A stretch of DNA of 38,277 nt. Origin: Streptacidiphilus pinicola (lineage in GTDB: Bacteria; Actinomycetota; Actinomycetes; Streptomycetales; Streptomycetaceae). The stretch lies in contig NZ_QKYN01000130.1 in the NCBI RefSeq assembly GCF_003258295.1, positions 1-38,277 on the forward strand, in the 5' to 3' direction. Both the position numbers and the translations under genes were made by a program. The notes under the pieces are model-generated. The model was not told the DNA's origin, ran no database searches, and saw only the letters and a list, made by a program, of their open reading frames with translations. Positions 31,480 through 38,277 of the stretch are shown here, one piece after another. Every line of letters begins with the position of its first letter. Positions within the stretch are counted from its first letter, which is position 1.

Positions 31480-33420
31480 GTGCCCAATCGGTCACCACGC
31501 CAACTCGCCCTCCTGAGGCGAGCCATGCCGCGTACGATCCGCGCGCGCCTGCCCGGACTGCTGGCCATCCCGACCTGTGCCCTGGTCGCGGTCGCGGTCA
31601 CCGGAACCGCCGGCCAGGCGTCGCGGTACTCGGCGGCAGGAGGTACCGCCGATCAGGTGGTCCTGGTCGCCGCCGCGGAAGACTACGTCCACCAGCTGCA
31701 GATGGAACGCGGGCTGACCGCCGGTCTGCTCGGAGGCGACCGGAGCTTCCGCAGCCGGCTGACTGCCCAGCGGTTGGCTACCGATGAGGCGCTTGGGCAG
31801 TTGAGGGCCCAGTTAGCCGCGGAAACGCCCACCAGCAGCGCGATCCGGACGGCACTCAACCTCCTGGCCGACCTGGCCGCCGAGCGTGGCAACGCAGACG
31901 ACGGCACCCTGGGCCGCACCGACGCCCTCACCTACTACACCAGGGCCATCGCCGCCCTGGATGACGCGGCCTTCTCCCACCCGACGCAGGTGGCGGATCT
32001 GCTGCTCTTCAACGACCTGGCGACCATGCGCAAACTCGAGGACGTCGTGGAGGCCGCCGCTCTGGAGCGTGGAACGGTGAACGGCATCCTGGCCTCCGGG
32101 GCTTTCCAACGCAACGACTACGCCACCTTTGCGCAGCTGCTCGGCCGCAGGAACGACGACGCCGCCCAGGTGCCACGCACGGCGACCAGCGTCCAGTCCC
32201 AGGCGCTTGCCGCCGCGCTGCGCACCCCGCAGGCAGTCACCGTGACCGGCTTGGAGCAGCAGCTGCTGGCCGCATCCAGCGCGAAGAAGCTCCCGATCGG
32301 CCCGGCCGACTGGTGGCAGCCCGCCACCGCGTTGGTCGACGGCCTGAACGGAGTGCGGCTGGAGGTGGCGGCCGACACCCAGGCACGCGCACAGCAGCTG
32401 CGGACCGATGCGCTACGGCAGCTGATCCTGGACGCGGGGCTGGCCCTGCTGGCATTGCTGGTCGCGGCCGGGCTGGCGTGGGCGGCAACCCGCTCGGTCC
32501 TGCGGCCGCTGCGGGCCCTCACGCAGGAAGCCGACCAGCTCGCCAGCCGCGACCTGCCGGCCGCCGTCGCCCGGGTGCGTGAGGCCAAAGACGGACACGA
32601 CCCTGCCGAACTCGCTCCCACCCTGCCCGGCTCCGCTCTCACCAGTCGCGGCGACGAGATGACCGAAGTGGCGCAGGCCCTGAACCGAGTGGCCACCACC
32701 GCCCTGCAACTAGCCGTCGAGCAAGCCGTACTGGAGCGCGACAGCACCGAGTCCCTGGCCAGCCTCGGACGCCGCACACACGAACTGGTGGGTCGTCAAC
32801 TCGACTTTCTCAGCGCCCTGGAGCGCGGCGAGAACGACCCGGAGGCGCTCGCTGACCTCTTCGAGCTCGACCACCTGGCCACCCGCATGCGGCGCAACGC
32901 CGAGAGCCTGCTGGTCCTGGCCGGCGAACGAAGCCCGCGCCGCTGGTCACAACCGGTGCCGATAGGCGACGTGCTGCGCTCCGCACTCGGGGAAGTGGAC
33001 GACTTCCGACGGGTCGTCCTGCGCCACAGCGACGACGTGCTACTCGACGGGAGCGCGGTCGCGGAGGTGTCCCACCTGCTCGCCGAGCTCGTCGACAACG
33101 CGCTGGCCGCCTCATCCCCAGCAACCGACGTGGAGGTCTACGCCCAGCGCCATGGTGCGGACTACCTCTTCGCGGTGGTGGATGTCGGCGCCGGACTCCC
33201 GCCGGAGGAACTGGCCTTGGCCAACCAGCGCCTCGCCGGCCAGGAGACCTTCCTGGCCGGCCGCAGCATGCAACTCGGCCACTACGTGGTGGCCCGGCTG
33301 GCAGCCGGCCTCGGCGCCCACGCCTGGCTGGCCGCCACACCGATCGGCGGCATCACGGCCTCCGTGCTGCTGCCCGGCGGTCTCGTGTCCGGGCACGCCG
33401 ACCTGGCCACTGCGCGATGA
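31480..33420 (+). CDS. NIT-HAMP sensor histidine kinase-like protein (conservon CvnA-like)
   Basis: This 646-residue membrane sensor has a first TM near 28-45 (LLAIPTCALVAVAVTG), an extracellular nitrate/nitrite-sensing (NIT) domain with YVHQLQMERGLTAGLLGGD, a second TM near 312-335 (AGLALLALLVAAGLAWAA), HAMP, a dimerisation helix (LFELDHLATRMRRNAESLLV) and an HATPase domain with the N-box HLLAELVDNALAASSP and the G1 box VVDVGAGLPP. The G2 region reads SMQLGHYVVARLA, where relatives have a Gly-Leu pair, so ATP turnover may be weak. GTG 31480 is set by GATGGGGGAG. The stop overlaps the DUF742 start. Conservon kinases act with roadblock, DUF742 and GTPase partners, two of which are missing here. 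Confidence 0.88.
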   Translation: MPNRSPRQLALLRRAMPRTIRARLPGLLAIPTCALVAVAVTGTAGQASRYSAAGGTADQVVLVAAAEDYVHQLQMERGLTAGLLGGDRSFRSRLTAQRLATDEALGQLRAQLAAETPTSSAIRTALNLLADLAAERGNADDGTLGRTDALTYYTRAIAALDDAAFSHPTQVADLLLFNDLATMRKLEDVVEAAALERGTVNGILASGAFQRNDYATFAQLLGRRNDDAAQVPRTATSVQSQALAAALRTPQAVTVTGLEQQLLAASSAKKLPIGPADWWQPATALVDGLNGVRLEVAADTQARAQQLRTDALRQLILDAGLALLALLVAAGLAWAATRSVLRPLRALTQEADQLASRDLPAAVARVREAKDGHDPAELAPTLPGSALTSRGDEMTEVAQALNRVATTALQLAVEQAVLERDSTESLASLGRRTHELVGRQLDFLSALERGENDPEALADLFELDHLATRMRRNAESLLVLAGERSPRRWSQPVPIGDVLRSALGEVDDFRRVVLRHSDDVLLDGSAVAEVSHLLAELVDNALAASSPATDVEVYAQRHGADYLFAVVDVGAGLPPEELALANQRLAGQETFLAGRSMQLGHYVVARLAAGLGAHAWLAATPIGGITASVLLPGGLVSGHADLATAR

Positions 33421-33779
33421 ACCCGGGAGGTGAGGACGCCGAGGCAGGCGAGGTCGTCCGCGCGTTCATTGTGACCCGTGGCCGGACCCGTCCTGTGCGA
33501 CCCGAATTGCGATTGGAGACCTTGGTCACGGCGTTCCCGGCAGCGCTCGGCGCACCGCTGGACTTCGAGCGCCTTCGCATCGTGGAGCTGTGCCGTTTCC
33601 CACACTCGGTCGCCGAGATCGCGGCGCTGCTCTCCCTTCCGCTCGGAGTGGCCCGCGTCCTGGTCGCCGACCTCGCTGCGGAGCGCCACCTCCACGTCCA
33701 CGATCACCCGCCCGAGCACGCGGGACGCCCCTCCATCGCCCTCTTGGAACGCATCCGCGACGGCCTGCTGCGGCTGTGA
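33417..33779 (+). CDS. DUF742 protein (CvnC-like), short form
   Basis: This 120-residue protein consists almost only of the DUF742 domain: VRAFIVTRGRTRPVRPELRL, FERLRIVELCRFPHSVAEIA, ALLSLPLGVARVLVADLAAE and the end SIALLERIRDGLLRL. It starts at an ATG overlapping the kinase stop (ATGA), so the two are translationally coupled. In complete conservons a roadblock gene lies between kinase and DUF742; here it is absent, and no GTPase gene follows. Directly after its stop begins a broken recombinase, so the operon may have been cut there by an insertion or recombination event. Confidence 0.88.
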   Translation: MNPGGEDAEAGEVVRAFIVTRGRTRPVRPELRLETLVTAFPAALGAPLDFERLRIVELCRFPHSVAEIAALLSLPLGVARVLVADLAAERHLHVHDHPPEHAGRPSIALLERIRDGLLRL

Positions 33780-33795
33780 CACGCGCGCGGCCGCA

Positions 33796-34275
33796 CTGCA
33801 CCCGAACCCGCAACGTCCGCCTGACCGCGATCCGCTCCCTGTTCTCCTACGCCGCCCTCCAGCGCCCCGAACACGCCCAGCTCATTCAGCGGGTCCTGGA
33901 CATCCCGCCCAAGTGGTTCGACAAGAGGGCCGTCACGTTCCTGAGCGGCCCGGAAGTCGACGCCCTGCTGGCGGCACCGGATCCGAAACGCTGGGATGAA
34001 CTGCGGGACAAGGCCACGTTGGCACTGGCCATTCAGACCGGCCTGCGCGACATCGAACTCACCAGCCTGAACTGCGACGACATCACCCTGGGCGACGGCG
34101 CCGTCGTCCGCTGTGAGGCAAGGGACGCAAACAGCGCAGCGTCCCGCTCGACCGCCCCGTCCAGAACCTGCTGGCCGCCGGGCTGAACGAACGCGCCGGA
34201 CGCCACGGCGACACCGCCCGGCCGGGCCGCTATCGGCCCACCGACAAGGCGCTGGCCTTCCTCGACCGCCTGTGA
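33796..34275 (+). pseudogene. Tyrosine recombinase (integrase) remnant
   Basis: This is the middle part of an XerC/D-like tyrosine recombinase: RNVRLTAIRSLFSYAALQRP, VLDIPPKWFDKRAVTFLSGP, and the first catalytic Arg in QTGLRDIELTSLNCDD. Near 34110 one G is missing; after it GKGRKQRSVPLDRPVQNLLA continues in the next frame to a TGA. The usual HxLR, second Arg and Tyr regions are absent, so the enzyme is dead. Its start is also missing, beginning right behind the DUF742 stop. The sequence resembles the recombinases of multi-recombinase transposons in actinomycetes. Confidence 0.8.
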
Positions 34276-35454: not shown

Positions 35455-36927
35455 GTGTTGAGTGAAGTTGAAGTCGGCGCACTCCTGGGAGGCAACTTCC
35501 CCGGGCTTGTCGAGTCTGCTGCGGACGACCTCTTGGAGGAAGCGGGCTTCGAGGGGTCTACGAGAGCAATGGTCGTTGGGATCCCGAACAGCGACCCAGG
35601 TGAGTCGTGGATCACGTCCGCTGACCGGGGGGTAGCTGCTGTTGATCTCTCGATGGTTCTCCGACGCGCCGAAGCCCACTACCAGCAACGCGAAAATCTG
35701 TACCTCAAGGACCCGAACGCCCAACTTTGGATGGGCCGATTCATGCGAGAGGAGTCGGAGGCGGCCGCGCTCAAGGAAGTTCTCGACTCCGACCACGCGC
35801 CAGCCAGCAGGACGTTTTTTGTCAGCCGTCCCGCGCTTGTCGGTGACCACAAGATCCACGTTGCCATAAGTGTTGACGCGGCTGCGTTGGCGCGAGTGCC
35901 GCGACTTGGTCCGCCAGCCACCCCGCAGCCCTACCTGGTGTACAGCATCATCGAGGCGATCCTGTTCGCGCTGCTGGAGCAGGCGCAGCGCGATCTCTAT
36001 ATGCCGAATCCGTCTGGAGCGGGGCCCAGCGACCTTGGGCGGCTCCCTTACGACACGCCTGAGATATCGGTGTACGCCATCAGCACCATGGTGCGCGCGG
36101 CCCTTGTGCGAGCCGGCCACACGCTCGCTGGCGCGGGAACCAATGCGAAGTTCAATGCCCTGTCCTCGCTGCTGTACGAGGGGCGGTCGCCCGCGGGACG
36201 CCTGCTAATAGCACCCCACAACCATGCTGCCCTAGACGTCGCCTTGCGCTTCGAGGAGCCGGTTCGTCTCGCCGAAGCGCGGCATGTCCGCAAGCTGCTC
36301 GAAGCCAGTGGTCCCGCCTATGCACTCCTTATGGACCATTCCCACGTCTATGGCCTGGGAGCCGTGGTTGCGGGTACGGAGTTGGAGACCGAGGAGATCT
36401 TCACGATCGCGATCCGCAAGGGAGGTGTTTGGCAACTCGAACATGGCAGCTCGGTCCTGTTCACAGTCCGGGACAACCAGCCGCACTTGCCCACGCCCCA
36501 GATCGACGCGGCCCGGATACGCGCCGCCATCGCCGCCAACATCCCCAACGCCGACGCGGAAACGTTGGTCACGCTGGCTCGTGCGGCCGGGGAACACCGG
36601 CACGGGGCGATGTTGATCATCTCCAGCGACGCTGAAGCCGAAGCCAAGCGACTTGCCCCTCAGGCGATGAAAACCCAGCCAATACTGCTCAAGTCCAAAC
36701 TGCTCGACCAACTGACGAACATGGACGGTGGCGTACTGGTGGACGGGAAGGGGAACTGCCACGCCGTCGGTGTGATACTCGACGGCCTTGCCTGCGACGG
36801 CAGCGACCCCGTGCGCGGCAGCCGCTTCAATAATGCGGCCAGATATATAGGCAGCACTATCCCATCGGCTGTGGTCCTCTCCTACAGCTCGGATGGAGAC
36901 GTCACCATCTTTTCGGTGCTCGAATAG
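35455..36927 (+). CDS. DAC (DisA_N-like) domain protein with N-terminal sensor region
   Basis: This is a 490-residue soluble protein. Residues 375-490 form a diadenylate-cyclase-type domain: HGAMLIISSDAEAEAKRL, the DGA-like motif NMDGGVLVDGKGNCHAVGVI (DGG at 424-426), the RHR-like motif GSRFNNAARYI (Arg457-Phe-Asn459) and the last strands AVVLSYSSDGDVTIF. Canonical cyclases have DGA and RHR; the changed residues leave c-di-AMP synthesis open, though an R-x-N variant seems usual in this subfamily (memory). Residues 1-370 form an alpha/beta region (RKLLEASGPAYALLMDHSHV, YGLGAVV) like the DACN-type sensor domains placed before DAC domains. GTG 35455 is the start. It heads an operon-like array with a CD-NTase and a membrane protein. 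Confidence 0.85.
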   Translation: MLSEVEVGALLGGNFPGLVESAADDLLEEAGFEGSTRAMVVGIPNSDPGESWITSADRGVAAVDLSMVLRRAEAHYQQRENLYLKDPNAQLWMGRFMREESEAAALKEVLDSDHAPASRTFFVSRPALVGDHKIHVAISVDAAALARVPRLGPPATPQPYLVYSIIEAILFALLEQAQRDLYMPNPSGAGPSDLGRLPYDTPEISVYAISTMVRAALVRAGHTLAGAGTNAKFNALSSLLYEGRSPAGRLLIAPHNHAALDVALRFEEPVRLAEARHVRKLLEASGPAYALLMDHSHVYGLGAVVAGTELETEEIFTIAIRKGGVWQLEHGSSVLFTVRDNQPHLPTPQIDAARIRAAIAANIPNADAETLVTLARAAGEHRHGAMLIISSDAEAEAKRLAPQAMKTQPILLKSKLLDQLTNMDGGVLVDGKGNCHAVGVILDGLACDGSDPVRGSRFNNAARYIGSTIPSAVVLSYSSDGDVTIFSVLE

Positions 36928-37203
36928 GACGGACGCTCCATCATGTGATGAGAGCGGCACGGCACGGAATGCTGCACTCTGCTGGTGCCACGACGAGCGG
37001 CTGACCGACCTGGGTTCCTGCTTCCGGCCCTTGCCTGCTGGCGCGCGCAGAGCCAAGTGCGGCTGGCCGCTCGCCCGGCCCAGGGGCTGGCCGACGGGTC
37101 CAACTCCACACCATGTCCGCGGCGGTGCGTATTCTTCCCCCGTGCGCAAGCCATCAGGCCCCAGGCAAGCATCCGCTCGCCGGGCCGAGGGGGAGGAAGC
37201 TAC
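36928..37203. other. Gap between the DAC and CD-NTase genes
   Basis: This is 276 bp with no supported gene. A TATTCT near 37130 could be a -10 for separate transcription of the CD-NTase, but no matching -35 is obvious. Confidence 0.35.
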
Positions 37204-38115
37204 GTGGGGATGTCCGACGCCGATCGCGCAGCGCTGCTGAGGCGAGCGGTAGCTCCGCCCAGCGACGCGGAGACCGAGCGGCTCGAACGCGCTGAGAGGA
37301 TGATCCGCTCCGCCGTCAGGGGGCACACCGCTTTCGCTGGCCTCGATCTGTCCGTGGAGGCGAAGGGCTCCTACGCCAACAACACCAACGTCCGATACGA
37401 CAGCGACGTCGACATTAAGGTGCAGCTCAACGACCGGGTGGTACATGCGTACCACCCCAAGCTGAGCCACTGGTCGTGGCGCTTGAACAACCACTATCGC
37501 GGCCCCTGGACGGCGACGCGGCTGCGCCAGGAGCTCGGTGCCGCCCTCAACACCGCCTTCGGCGCCATCGACGCGACGCGCAACGTCGCCTTCTACATCC
37601 CCGAGGTCGCAGGCAGCCGCCCGAGCGCCGATGTGGTCCCCTGCTTCGCGTACCGCCAGTACCGTGACGCAAACGCCTCGCAGTGGGACGAAGGCAGCAT
37701 CGTCCACACCCGCGACGGCGGAAACATCGTCAACTGGCCCGCGCAGCAACTGGTCAACGGGCGGGACAAGAACAAGCGCACCAACCGCCGCTACAAGTTC
37801 GCGGTGCGAGCGCTGAAGTACGTAGAGAACGACCTGGCGCGACGCGGAGTGATCAATGAGCTGCCGTCGTACTTCATGGAATGCCTGATCTACAACGTCC
37901 CCGACGCCGTCCTGATGGGTGACTCCCTGGACGCGTCGTTCCGCGGTGCGATCGCCCACCTGCGGGGCGAGGTCCACATGATCTGGGGCAACTGGCGCGG
38001 GATGCTCGAGCCGAACGAAATGAAGAAGGTCTTCCAAGACGGCCAGAAGTGGAAGATCAGAGATGCCAGACAACTCCTCGATGCGGCCTGGCACCACCTC
38101 AACTACGGATCGTGA
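37204..38115 (+). CDS. CD-NTase (CBASS-type nucleotidyltransferase)
   Basis: This 303-residue protein has the cGAS/DncV-like nucleotidyltransferase core: AKGSYANNTNVRYDSDVDIK gives GS at 55-56 and the DxD pair (D68, D70). The third Asp (D143) is in SADVVPCFAY. A C-terminal helical domain follows (RRYKFAVRALKYVENDLARR, LPSYFMECLIYNVPDA), as in OAS/CD-NTase proteins. All three metal-binding acids are present, so it should make a cyclic or linear oligonucleotide signal in the cytoplasm. GTG 37204 is preferred: GGAGG lies seven bases before it, while ATG 37210 is 13 bases away. Its TGA overlaps the next ATG by one base. No Cap2/Cap3 or HORMA genes are visible before the window ends. Confidence 0.9.
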   Translation: MGMSDADRAALLRRAVAPPSDAETERLERAERMIRSAVRGHTAFAGLDLSVEAKGSYANNTNVRYDSDVDIKVQLNDRVVHAYHPKLSHWSWRLNNHYRGPWTATRLRQELGAALNTAFGAIDATRNVAFYIPEVAGSRPSADVVPCFAYRQYRDANASQWDEGSIVHTRDGGNIVNWPAQQLVNGRDKNKRTNRRYKFAVRALKYVENDLARRGVINELPSYFMECLIYNVPDAVLMGDSLDASFRGAIAHLRGEVHMIWGNWRGMLEPNEMKKVFQDGQKWKIRDARQLLDAAWHHLNYGS

Positions 38116-38277
38116 TGAACTCACCAGCCCAATCCATACGACGCGGAGCGACTGCGGCGTCCACCGTATACAGCGCCCTCATCTACGTCCTGGGACTGCA
38201 ACCGAACAAGGAACTGAAGTACGCGCTCGCCTACGTGCCAGCGATCCTGGGCTACCTAGTTGTTCTGTCCCGTGAGG
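38115..38277 (+). CDS. Membrane protein, probable CBASS-type effector (partial)
   Basis: Starting at an ATG that overlaps the CD-NTase stop (TGATG), the first 54 residues contain two hydrophobic stretches: AASTVYSALIYVLGL and YALAYVPAILGYLVVL, separated by QPNKELK. The window ends inside the gene. Two closely spaced N-terminal TM helices directly after a CD-NTase fit a membrane-disrupting effector of the 2TM type, such as Cap15-like proteins with a beta-barrel nucleotide sensor, but the sensor part lies outside the window. The tight overlap supports cotranscription. Confidence 0.65.
   Translation, partial: MNSPAQSIRRGATAASTVYSALIYVLGLQPNKELKYALAYVPAILGYLVVLSRE

What the first reader, a model, noticed from the sequence alone, without database searches (positions are those of the whole stretch)
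35455..38277. Operon-like array combining a DAC-type domain, a CD-NTase and a 2TM membrane protein
Seen: a DAC-like domain with changed DGA/RHR motifs, a CD-NTase with intact GS, DxD and third Asp, and a membrane gene overlapping the CD-NTase stop. Known: CBASS loci normally have one CD-NTase plus an effector, and DAC domains make c-di-AMP. Inference: this is a defence system with two nucleotide modules. The DAC protein could make a second signal, bind or degrade signals, or hold the membrane effector inactive until a phage nuclease lowers its product, like the guard logic reported for Panoptes systems. A DAC partner is not a standard CBASS component.
Basis: partly seen in the sequence, partly recalled or inferred. 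Interest (0 to 1): 0.92.

Follow-up and report, generated by a model that had tools for sequence, protein, structure and literature searches.

The report
CBASS operon with extra DAC cyclase
This bacterium carries a predicted phage-defence gene set in which a CBASS signal enzyme and its likely membrane-disrupting effector sit next to a second, unrelated signal enzyme, a relative of the published DS-2 system, but a jumping gene appears to have cut the effector gene in two, so the set is likely silent in this strain.

Summary
The array is real, but its idea is already in print. The window is one whole contig. Its last 2.8 kb hold an open 490-residue DACNG-DACNH-DAC gene, a CdnE-type CD-NTase with intact catalytic residues, and 47 codons of a membrane gene. 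The contig ends 17 bases inside an insertion element. The rest of that gene lies on contig C35, next to the matching element end and the same 6-bp target duplication. It carries a Cap15 receptor domain; a truncated second DAC gene follows. So this is a CBASS (CdnE + Cap15) with a DAC module, its effector most likely split. CBASS plus DAC was shown to defend as DS-2 (Science 2026, phospholipase effector). I found no report of the Cap15 version: 11 of 80 DAC loci are CdnE-Cap15-DAC, 12 of 80 phospholipase-CdnE-DAC. In 394 family genomes the DAC occurs in 5 of 11 with a related CdnE and 2 of 383 without: a real, optional partner that goes with different effectors. RHR is lost throughout the family; DGG for DGA is shared by close relatives. 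Best mechanism: the DAC product is a second required input. Decoy and Panoptes-like guard readings stay open.

The parts
35455..36927 (+). DAC-type protein, 490 aa, short form without the ~85-residue C-terminal extension that 27 of 32 aligned members have
   Evidence: Pfam DACNH 1.3e-23, DACNG 2.4e-22; NCBIfam DS2_3_antiphage 399 bits, cut-off 630; 32-row alignment
35509..36015 (+). DACNG domain (residues 19-187), GAF/IclR/Roadblock-like in the predicted fold
36145..36447 (+). DACNH domain (residues 231-331)
36505..36903 (+). DAC (diadenylate cyclase) domain, residues 351-483, with D424-G-G and R457-F-N in place of DGA and RHR
37204..38115 (+). CdnE-type CD-NTase; start GTG 37204 or ATG 37210; catalytic D66, D68, D141 and QKW (residues 279-281 counted from 37210)
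   Evidence: PADLOC PDLC00794 1.6e-116; PDB 7x4f cyclic dipyrimidine synthase 5.9e-49
38115..38255 (+). First 47 codons of the cap15-like effector gene (membrane part), overlapping the CD-NTase stop by one base
   Evidence: 68% identity to residues 1-47 of the intact 211-aa Cap15 of a same-genus genome (L141); no Pfam hit on its own
38255..38260 (.). Target duplication CCTAGT of the insertion element, the same as at C35:200-205
38261..38277 (.). End of an insertion element (IS481-like by recall) at which the contig stops
   Evidence: four left and four right ends of the element in this genome pair uniquely by their 6-bp duplications

Best explanation
The end of the window holds a predicted CBASS locus (a CdnE-type CD-NTase and a Cap15-type membrane effector) with a DS-2-type DAC gene upstream: the CdnE is predicted to make a cyclic di-pyrimidine that would open Cap15 in the membrane, the DAC likely makes an adenine dinucleotide that would be a second required input, and an insertion element most likely splits cap15 in this genome. 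Shown here by sequence: the gene content, intact catalytic residues of the CD-NTase, the QxW donor motif, the Cap15 receptor domain on contig C35, matching insertion ends and target duplications, and the recurrence of DAC beside CdnE. Inferred: that the DAC is enzymatically active (from its predicted fold, the invariant Asp and the DS-2 mutants), the identity of both products, and the order of action. I place the DAC's action at or above CdnE rather than on one effector, because the same DAC family is coupled to Cap15 and to phospholipase and to CdnE of two donor-pocket types.
For: Families. Predicted fold of the DAC domain. Catalytic Asp triad in the window CdnE; QxW lid-3 motif in 15 of 16 distinct Cap15-linked CdnE (window included; exception L030) against 0 of 14 phospholipase-linked ones (one further CD-NTase of L066 and the duplicate row L118 left out). 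The published (R/Q)xW motif sets pyrimidine donors, and the three enzymes of that paper are encoded with Cap15 (PMC10442399, abstract and passages). Halves of cap15: window part 68% identical to residues 1-47 and C35 part 70% identical to residues 49-211 of one intact relative; both in the same codon phase at CTAG; same 6-bp duplication. Recurrence: of 80 DAC loci 11 CdnE-Cap15-DAC and 12 phospholipase-CdnE-DAC. Association in 394 genomes. One other genome, G557, has the window's order DAC-CdnE-Cap15 (L126). DS-2 loses defence when predicted DAC catalytic residues are mutated (PMC13092281, passages); a DS-2-layout plasmid DAC over the NCBI cut-off also has R-Y-N (L109).
Against: No product was measured, and DGG with R-F-N could mean altered or no cyclase activity in this protein. 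Six of 11 related CdnE genomes have no DAC hit at all, so CdnE-Cap15 can evidently exist without it; that weakens 'required' and fits 'accessory' as well. The five DAC-less CdnE printed (by eye) also have QKW, so the motif does not track the DAC. Four loci pair Cap15 with DAC without an adjacent CdnE (L026, L050, L079, L104), which would suit direct action on Cap15 better than action on CdnE. 52 of 80 DAC loci show none of the three partners. The link C60-element-C35 is inferred from contig ends, not read through.
Confidence: 0.5

Rival explanations
1. Decoy or sponge-filling: the DAC floods the cell with an adenine dinucleotide that occupies phage sponges and nucleases, so that the CdnE signal survives. 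The DAC would be an anti-anti-CBASS accessory.
For: Explains why the DAC is optional (5 of 11 CdnE genomes), why its position varies (of 18 CdnE-Cap15-DAC sets, 15 have it downstream, L020 divergent, the window and G557 upstream) and why it goes with two effectors and two CdnE pocket types. Phage proteins that deplete such nucleotides are known. Fits loss of DS-2 defence in DAC mutants if the test phage carries such a protein.
Against: No phage protein was tested here. Cap15-DAC loci without an adjacent CdnE are not explained unless an unlinked CD-NTase serves them; matches to such genes exist in three of the four genomes.
Confidence: 0.2
2. Panoptes-like guard: the DAC makes an adenine dinucleotide all the time that keeps Cap15 shut; its loss during infection, or the CdnE product, opens Cap15.
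For: The effector is of the same 2TM-beta family as OptE, which c-di-AMP holds inactive (PMC12657218, PMC12657230, passages). Four loci couple Cap15 and DAC without adjacent CdnE, at four separate places of the DAC tree.
Against: DS-2 DAC mutants lose defence (phospholipase effector; toxicity is not mentioned in the passages seen). Intact CdnE-Cap15 without a DAC hit occurs in same-genus genomes G004 and G011, so these Cap15 proteins evidently need no DAC to be kept shut. In G107 the missing CdnE looks like a rearrangement, since its neighbour belongs to a common Streptomyces family.
Confidence: 0.15
3. The DAC protein is not a cyclase any more and serves as a nucleotide-binding sensor or partner of CdnE.
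For: DGG and R-F-N replace DGA and RHR; the Pfam DAC model does not match the window protein, while the precomputed Pfam lists show PF02457 for many relatives.
Against: The catalytic Asp is invariant in 32 of 32, the predicted fold is that of active DACs, and DS-2, whose plasmid-borne relative shares R-Y-N (L109), needs predicted catalytic residues (which residues were changed is not stated in the passages seen).
Confidence: 0.1
4. Coincidental neighbourhood: the DAC is a housekeeping or unrelated gene that happens to lie beside a CBASS locus.
For: 52 of 80 DAC loci show no CdnE, Cap15 or phospholipase within the fetched flanks; 276 bp separate DAC and CdnE in the window.
Against: 5 of 11 against 2 of 383 genomes; such gene sets in Actinomycetota, Pseudomonadota and Chloroflexota, on plasmids and in one viral contig.
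Confidence: 0.05

Closest known systems
DS-2 (DefensePredictor, Science 2026, PMC13092281)
   Same: CD-NTase plus DAC plus effector; the DAC is of the same family (NF053872, 399 bits for the window protein).
   Different: DS-2 has a phospholipase effector; in the two plasmid relatives looked at the DAC is full-length. Here the effector is Cap15, the DAC is short and upstream, and both proteins stay below the NCBIfam DS-2 cut-offs.
Type I CBASS, CdnE + Cap15 (e.g. LpCdnE, ClCdnE, EfCdnE loci, PMC10442399)
   Same: CdnE with (R/Q)xW donor motif next to Cap15; here the cap15 start overlaps the CdnE stop.
   Different: An additional DAC gene upstream and a truncated one downstream; cap15 most likely split by an insertion element in this genome.
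Panoptes (OptS/mCpol + OptE/2TM-beta; PMC12657218, PMC12657230)
   Same: 2TM-beta effector and a synthase expected to make an adenine dinucleotide.
   Different: The synthase is a DAC-fold protein, not an mCpol, and a CD-NTase is present as well.
Canonical diadenylate cyclases (DisA, CdaA)
   Different: DGG and R-F-N motifs, DACNG/DACNH sensor-type domains in front.

Membership tests
Type I CBASS | CD-NTase with intact catalytic residues | tested here: met
   D66, D68, D141 invariant with 11 relatives and in the wider alignment except L114; PDB CdnE match 5.9e-49
Type I CBASS | Adjacent cyclic-nucleotide-gated effector gene | tested here: met
   Cap15 receptor domain PF18153 1.2e-14 on the C35 part, membrane part in the window; most likely interrupted by an insertion element
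Type I CBASS | No Cap2/Cap3 or HORMA/TRIP13 helpers | not tested
   no dedicated search was made for them
Type I CBASS | Anti-phage activity | not testable with these tools
   no experiment
DS-2 | DAC protein over the NCBIfam NF053872 cut-off (630 bits) | tested here: not met
   399 bits; the long DACs of L016, L109, L050 pass with 741, 804, 723 bits
DS-2 | CD-NTase over the NF053871 cut-off (350 bits) | tested here: not met
   124 bits
DS-2 | Patatin-like phospholipase effector | tested here: not met
   Cap15 instead; no hit in the window or on C35 with a patatin model built here
Panoptes | mCpol (OptS) synthase | tested here: inconclusive
   the two synthase genes seen are a CD-NTase and a DAC-fold protein; no mCpol search of the genome was made
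Panoptes | 2TM-beta effector | tested here: met
   Cap15-type domain; OptE belongs to the same family according to PMC12657218
Panoptes | Cyclic nucleotide inhibits the effector | not testable with these tools
   needs toxicity assays
Canonical DAC | DAC fold | tested here: met
Canonical DAC | DGA and RHR motifs | tested here: not met
   DGG and RFN

The most novel reading that the evidence does not exclude
Cap15 in these loci is a dual-ligand switch read by two unrelated cyclases at once: the DAC product holds the 2TM-beta effector shut and the CdnE product opens it, so the cell dies on either loss of one signal or gain of the other. CBASS and Panoptes logic would be fused in one operon, and the CdnE-less Cap15-DAC pairs would be DAC-based Panoptes systems.
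Probability: 0.12. Interest if true: 0.85.

Novelty: new variant of a known kind. Interest (0 to 1): 0.45.

Why it matters
Why a CBASS locus would carry a second, unrelated cyclase is open since DS-2. The set gathered here shows that the DAC follows CdnE across two effector types and two predicted donor-pocket types, is present or absent between close relatives, and sits on either side of the core genes. That turns 'what does the DAC do' into a testable question with natural plus and minus pairs in the same genus (window genome against G004 and G011). If the DAC proves to be a guard or decoy, it adds a layer of counter-counter-defence to CBASS.

Tried and rejected
Novel combination: rejected, because DS-2 was found in print (listing, passages, outline); the DAC-CBASS association is credited there to Galperin 2023, which is not held, so I did not see it. 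Paper searches in whose listings I saw no report of Cap15 with a DAC gene: (open-access library only; two showed the best 20 of 87 and 69 papers; most listed papers were not opened). The one paper with both 'diadenylate cyclase' and 'Cap15' mentions the former only in its introduction. Supplements could not be opened, so Fig. S9 of the DS-2 paper was not seen and may show Cap15 sets.

RHR loss as sign of a special enzyme: rejected, family-wide. I first took the DGG change for family-wide too; the recount shows it is not (1 of 80), only common among near relatives (16 of 32). Coincidence: rejected (in the rows shown at most 5 first-look candidates per genome were scored, so misses are possible). 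Cap15-DAC without CdnE as a clean two-gene system: weakened. G107 shows no CD-NTase by two profiles, but the gene that stands in place of CdnE belongs to a family with 139 hits, mostly Streptomyces where named, which looks like a rearrangement. The genomes of L026, L050 and L079 have CD-NTase-domain matches elsewhere; L079 also has a phospholipase-like gene 2.2 kb from the DAC. Phages: no hit to the DAC; viral contigs: 2 loci. G250 had a weak DAC hit (20 bits) that the family model did not confirm; it stays among the 2 of 383, which works against the association. Promoter and terminator scan: no promoter-like site, one terminator-like site against 1.9 expected. Sequence search of solved structures with the DAC protein: three chance-level hits, E 0.078-1.4. 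The neighbour listing of DAC-only loci gave me no common partner; the CD-NTase model used there is CdnE-like and would miss other clades, and one search's output was cut. Rows dropped before the DAC tree: 12 of the 80 loci (broken, partial or very long proteins: L074, L076, L077, L082, L085, L086, L088-L090, L092-L094), the viral locus L115 and repeats.
Full report

The third gene and the contig end. The gene starts in the CD-NTase stop (ATG 38115). The last 17 bases of the window are an insertion-element end. A pattern search of the genome found four such left ends and four right ends (one match to the reversed control pattern). They pair uniquely by their 6-bp target duplications: C60 with C35 (CCTAGT), C252 with C50 (GCTAGT), C4 with C70 (TCTAGG), C112 with C265 (GCTAGG). 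Contig C35 begins inside the element, repeats CCTAGT, and continues in the same codon phase with a Cap15 receptor domain (PF18153, 1.2e-14). In genome G004 of the same genus an intact 211-residue Cap15 matches the window part at residues 1-47 (68% identity) and the C35 part at 49-211 (70%). So one cap15 gene is most likely split by the element. IS481 family membership (target NCTAGN) is recalled, not tested. Behind cap15 on C35 lies a DACNG-only remnant of a second DAC (PF21752, 8.5e-39; 60% identical to P0005).

The motifs. RHR is absent from all 80 wider DAC loci: 65 have R-[FY]-N, the rest close variants, one of them a match I take for false. DGA is kept in 62 of 80, with DGT 11, DGS 5, DGG 1 and one not matched; among the 32 nearest members, window included, 16 have DGG. 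The Asp is invariant in all 32.

Is the association real? A scan of genome contigs with the DAC alignment gave 183 pattern matches, 92 relatives, 80 kept. Of the 80: 11 carry CdnE, Cap15 and DAC (L016-L025, L030; L020 in divergent orientation), 12 carry phospholipase, CdnE and DAC (the published DS-2 gene content; L064 and L066 also have Cap15 genes nearby), 3 carry Cap15 and DAC without CdnE (L026, L050, L079), 1 has only a weak CD-NTase hit (L045), 1 a phospholipase-like gene 5 kb off (L084), and 52 none of these. Further loci outside the 80: CdnE-Cap15-DAC in L102, L106, L119, L125, L126 and a viral contig (L114, whose third Asp is Gly); Cap15-DAC in L104; phospholipase-CdnE-DAC on two plasmids. 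From the other side, 11 of 394 genomes of the family hold a CdnE like the window's (E up to 1e-20) and 7 of 394 hold the DAC (E up to 1e-3; the handles indicate the same draw). Five genomes hold both, own genome included: 5 of 11 against 2 of 383, p = 1.2e-7; without the own genome 4 of 10 against 2 of 383, p = 3.1e-6. One of those 2, G250, is a doubtful hit. None of the 60 relatives has the DAC. Further draws found it in 6 of 391 genomes of the order (partly the same ones) and, with P0003 as query, in 3 of 392 of one genus.

The DAC is optional and variably placed. In the clade of eight CdnE that holds the window's, three have a DAC (window upstream, G557 upstream, G146 downstream) and five do not (contexts). 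Five of the six DAC-less CdnE loci have Cap15 next to CdnE; the sixth (L144) ends with its contig. On the DAC tree (87 rows, quick method, 12 of the 80 loci left out) the four context groups need 11 changes against a shuffled mean of 29.4, so context is clustered but has changed repeatedly. The four Cap15-only DACs sit in four separate places. Of the distinct Cap15-linked CdnE, 15 of 16 have QxW (not L030); of the phospholipase-linked, 0 of 14. One DAC family is thus used with two predicted donor-pocket types and two effectors.

Mechanism. DS-2 is reported as phospholipase, cGAS-like enzyme and DAC; changing two predicted catalytic residues of the DAC abolished defence, and 15 of 30 DAC homologues lay beside CBASS (PMC13092281; passages). 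A positive, catalytic role is therefore the best start. Because the DAC goes with different effectors and different CdnE pockets, I favour an input at or above CdnE, a two-key system, at about 0.4 for this step. A decoy role (0.2) explains optionality and position equally well. A Panoptes-like guard (0.15) draws on the kinship of Cap15 and OptE (PMC12657218, PMC12657230; passages) and on Cap15-DAC pairs without adjacent CdnE. It is weakened by the DS-2 mutants, by CdnE-Cap15 loci in G004 and G011 whose genomes show no DAC hit, and by signs that the clearest pair (G107) is a rearrangement.

Verdict. The locus is a CBASS of predicted type I with a DS-2-like DAC module, in a Cap15 version that I did not see described in the listings, with the effector probably broken in this strain. 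It is not a member of DS-2 by NCBI's cut-offs; it is a relative that probably works in a similar way.

Noticed in passing
window 33590-34186: Partial tyrosine recombinase (Phage_integrase 4.3e-5, below the cut-off) just upstream of the array: likely remnant of a mobile element.
   Followed up: partly
window 31480-33779: NIT-HAMP-HATPase sensor protein followed by DUF742: looks like part of a conservon operon (recalled), cut short near the integrase remnant.
   Followed up: partly
contigs C4, C35, C50, C60, C70, C112, C252, C265 of the own genome: Four copies of one insertion element, each at a break of the assembly; contigs pair by target duplications.
   Followed up: yes
L114:766-1671: CD-NTase of a CdnE-Cap15-DAC set in a viral contig has Gly at the third catalytic Asp position.
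   Followed up: no
L104:8080-9057 (minus): In G107 a member of a common Streptomyces protein family stands where CdnE is expected and overlaps cap15; no CD-NTase found in that genome by two profiles.
   Followed up: partly
L066:5667-13352: Pseudomonas locus with phospholipase-CdnE-DAC and, 1.3 kb on, a second CD-NTase with two Cap15-type genes.
   Followed up: no
L086:9725-11287 and L088:9710-11272: Paenibacillus DACs (over 850 aa) are followed by a gene that reads like an alpha/beta-hydrolase, possibly another DAC partner (no family search made).
   Followed up: no
window 35455-36927 and P0003, P0004, P0040, P0045: A short DAC form without the conserved C-terminal extension recurs in the window's own subclade, mixed with long forms.
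   Followed up: partly
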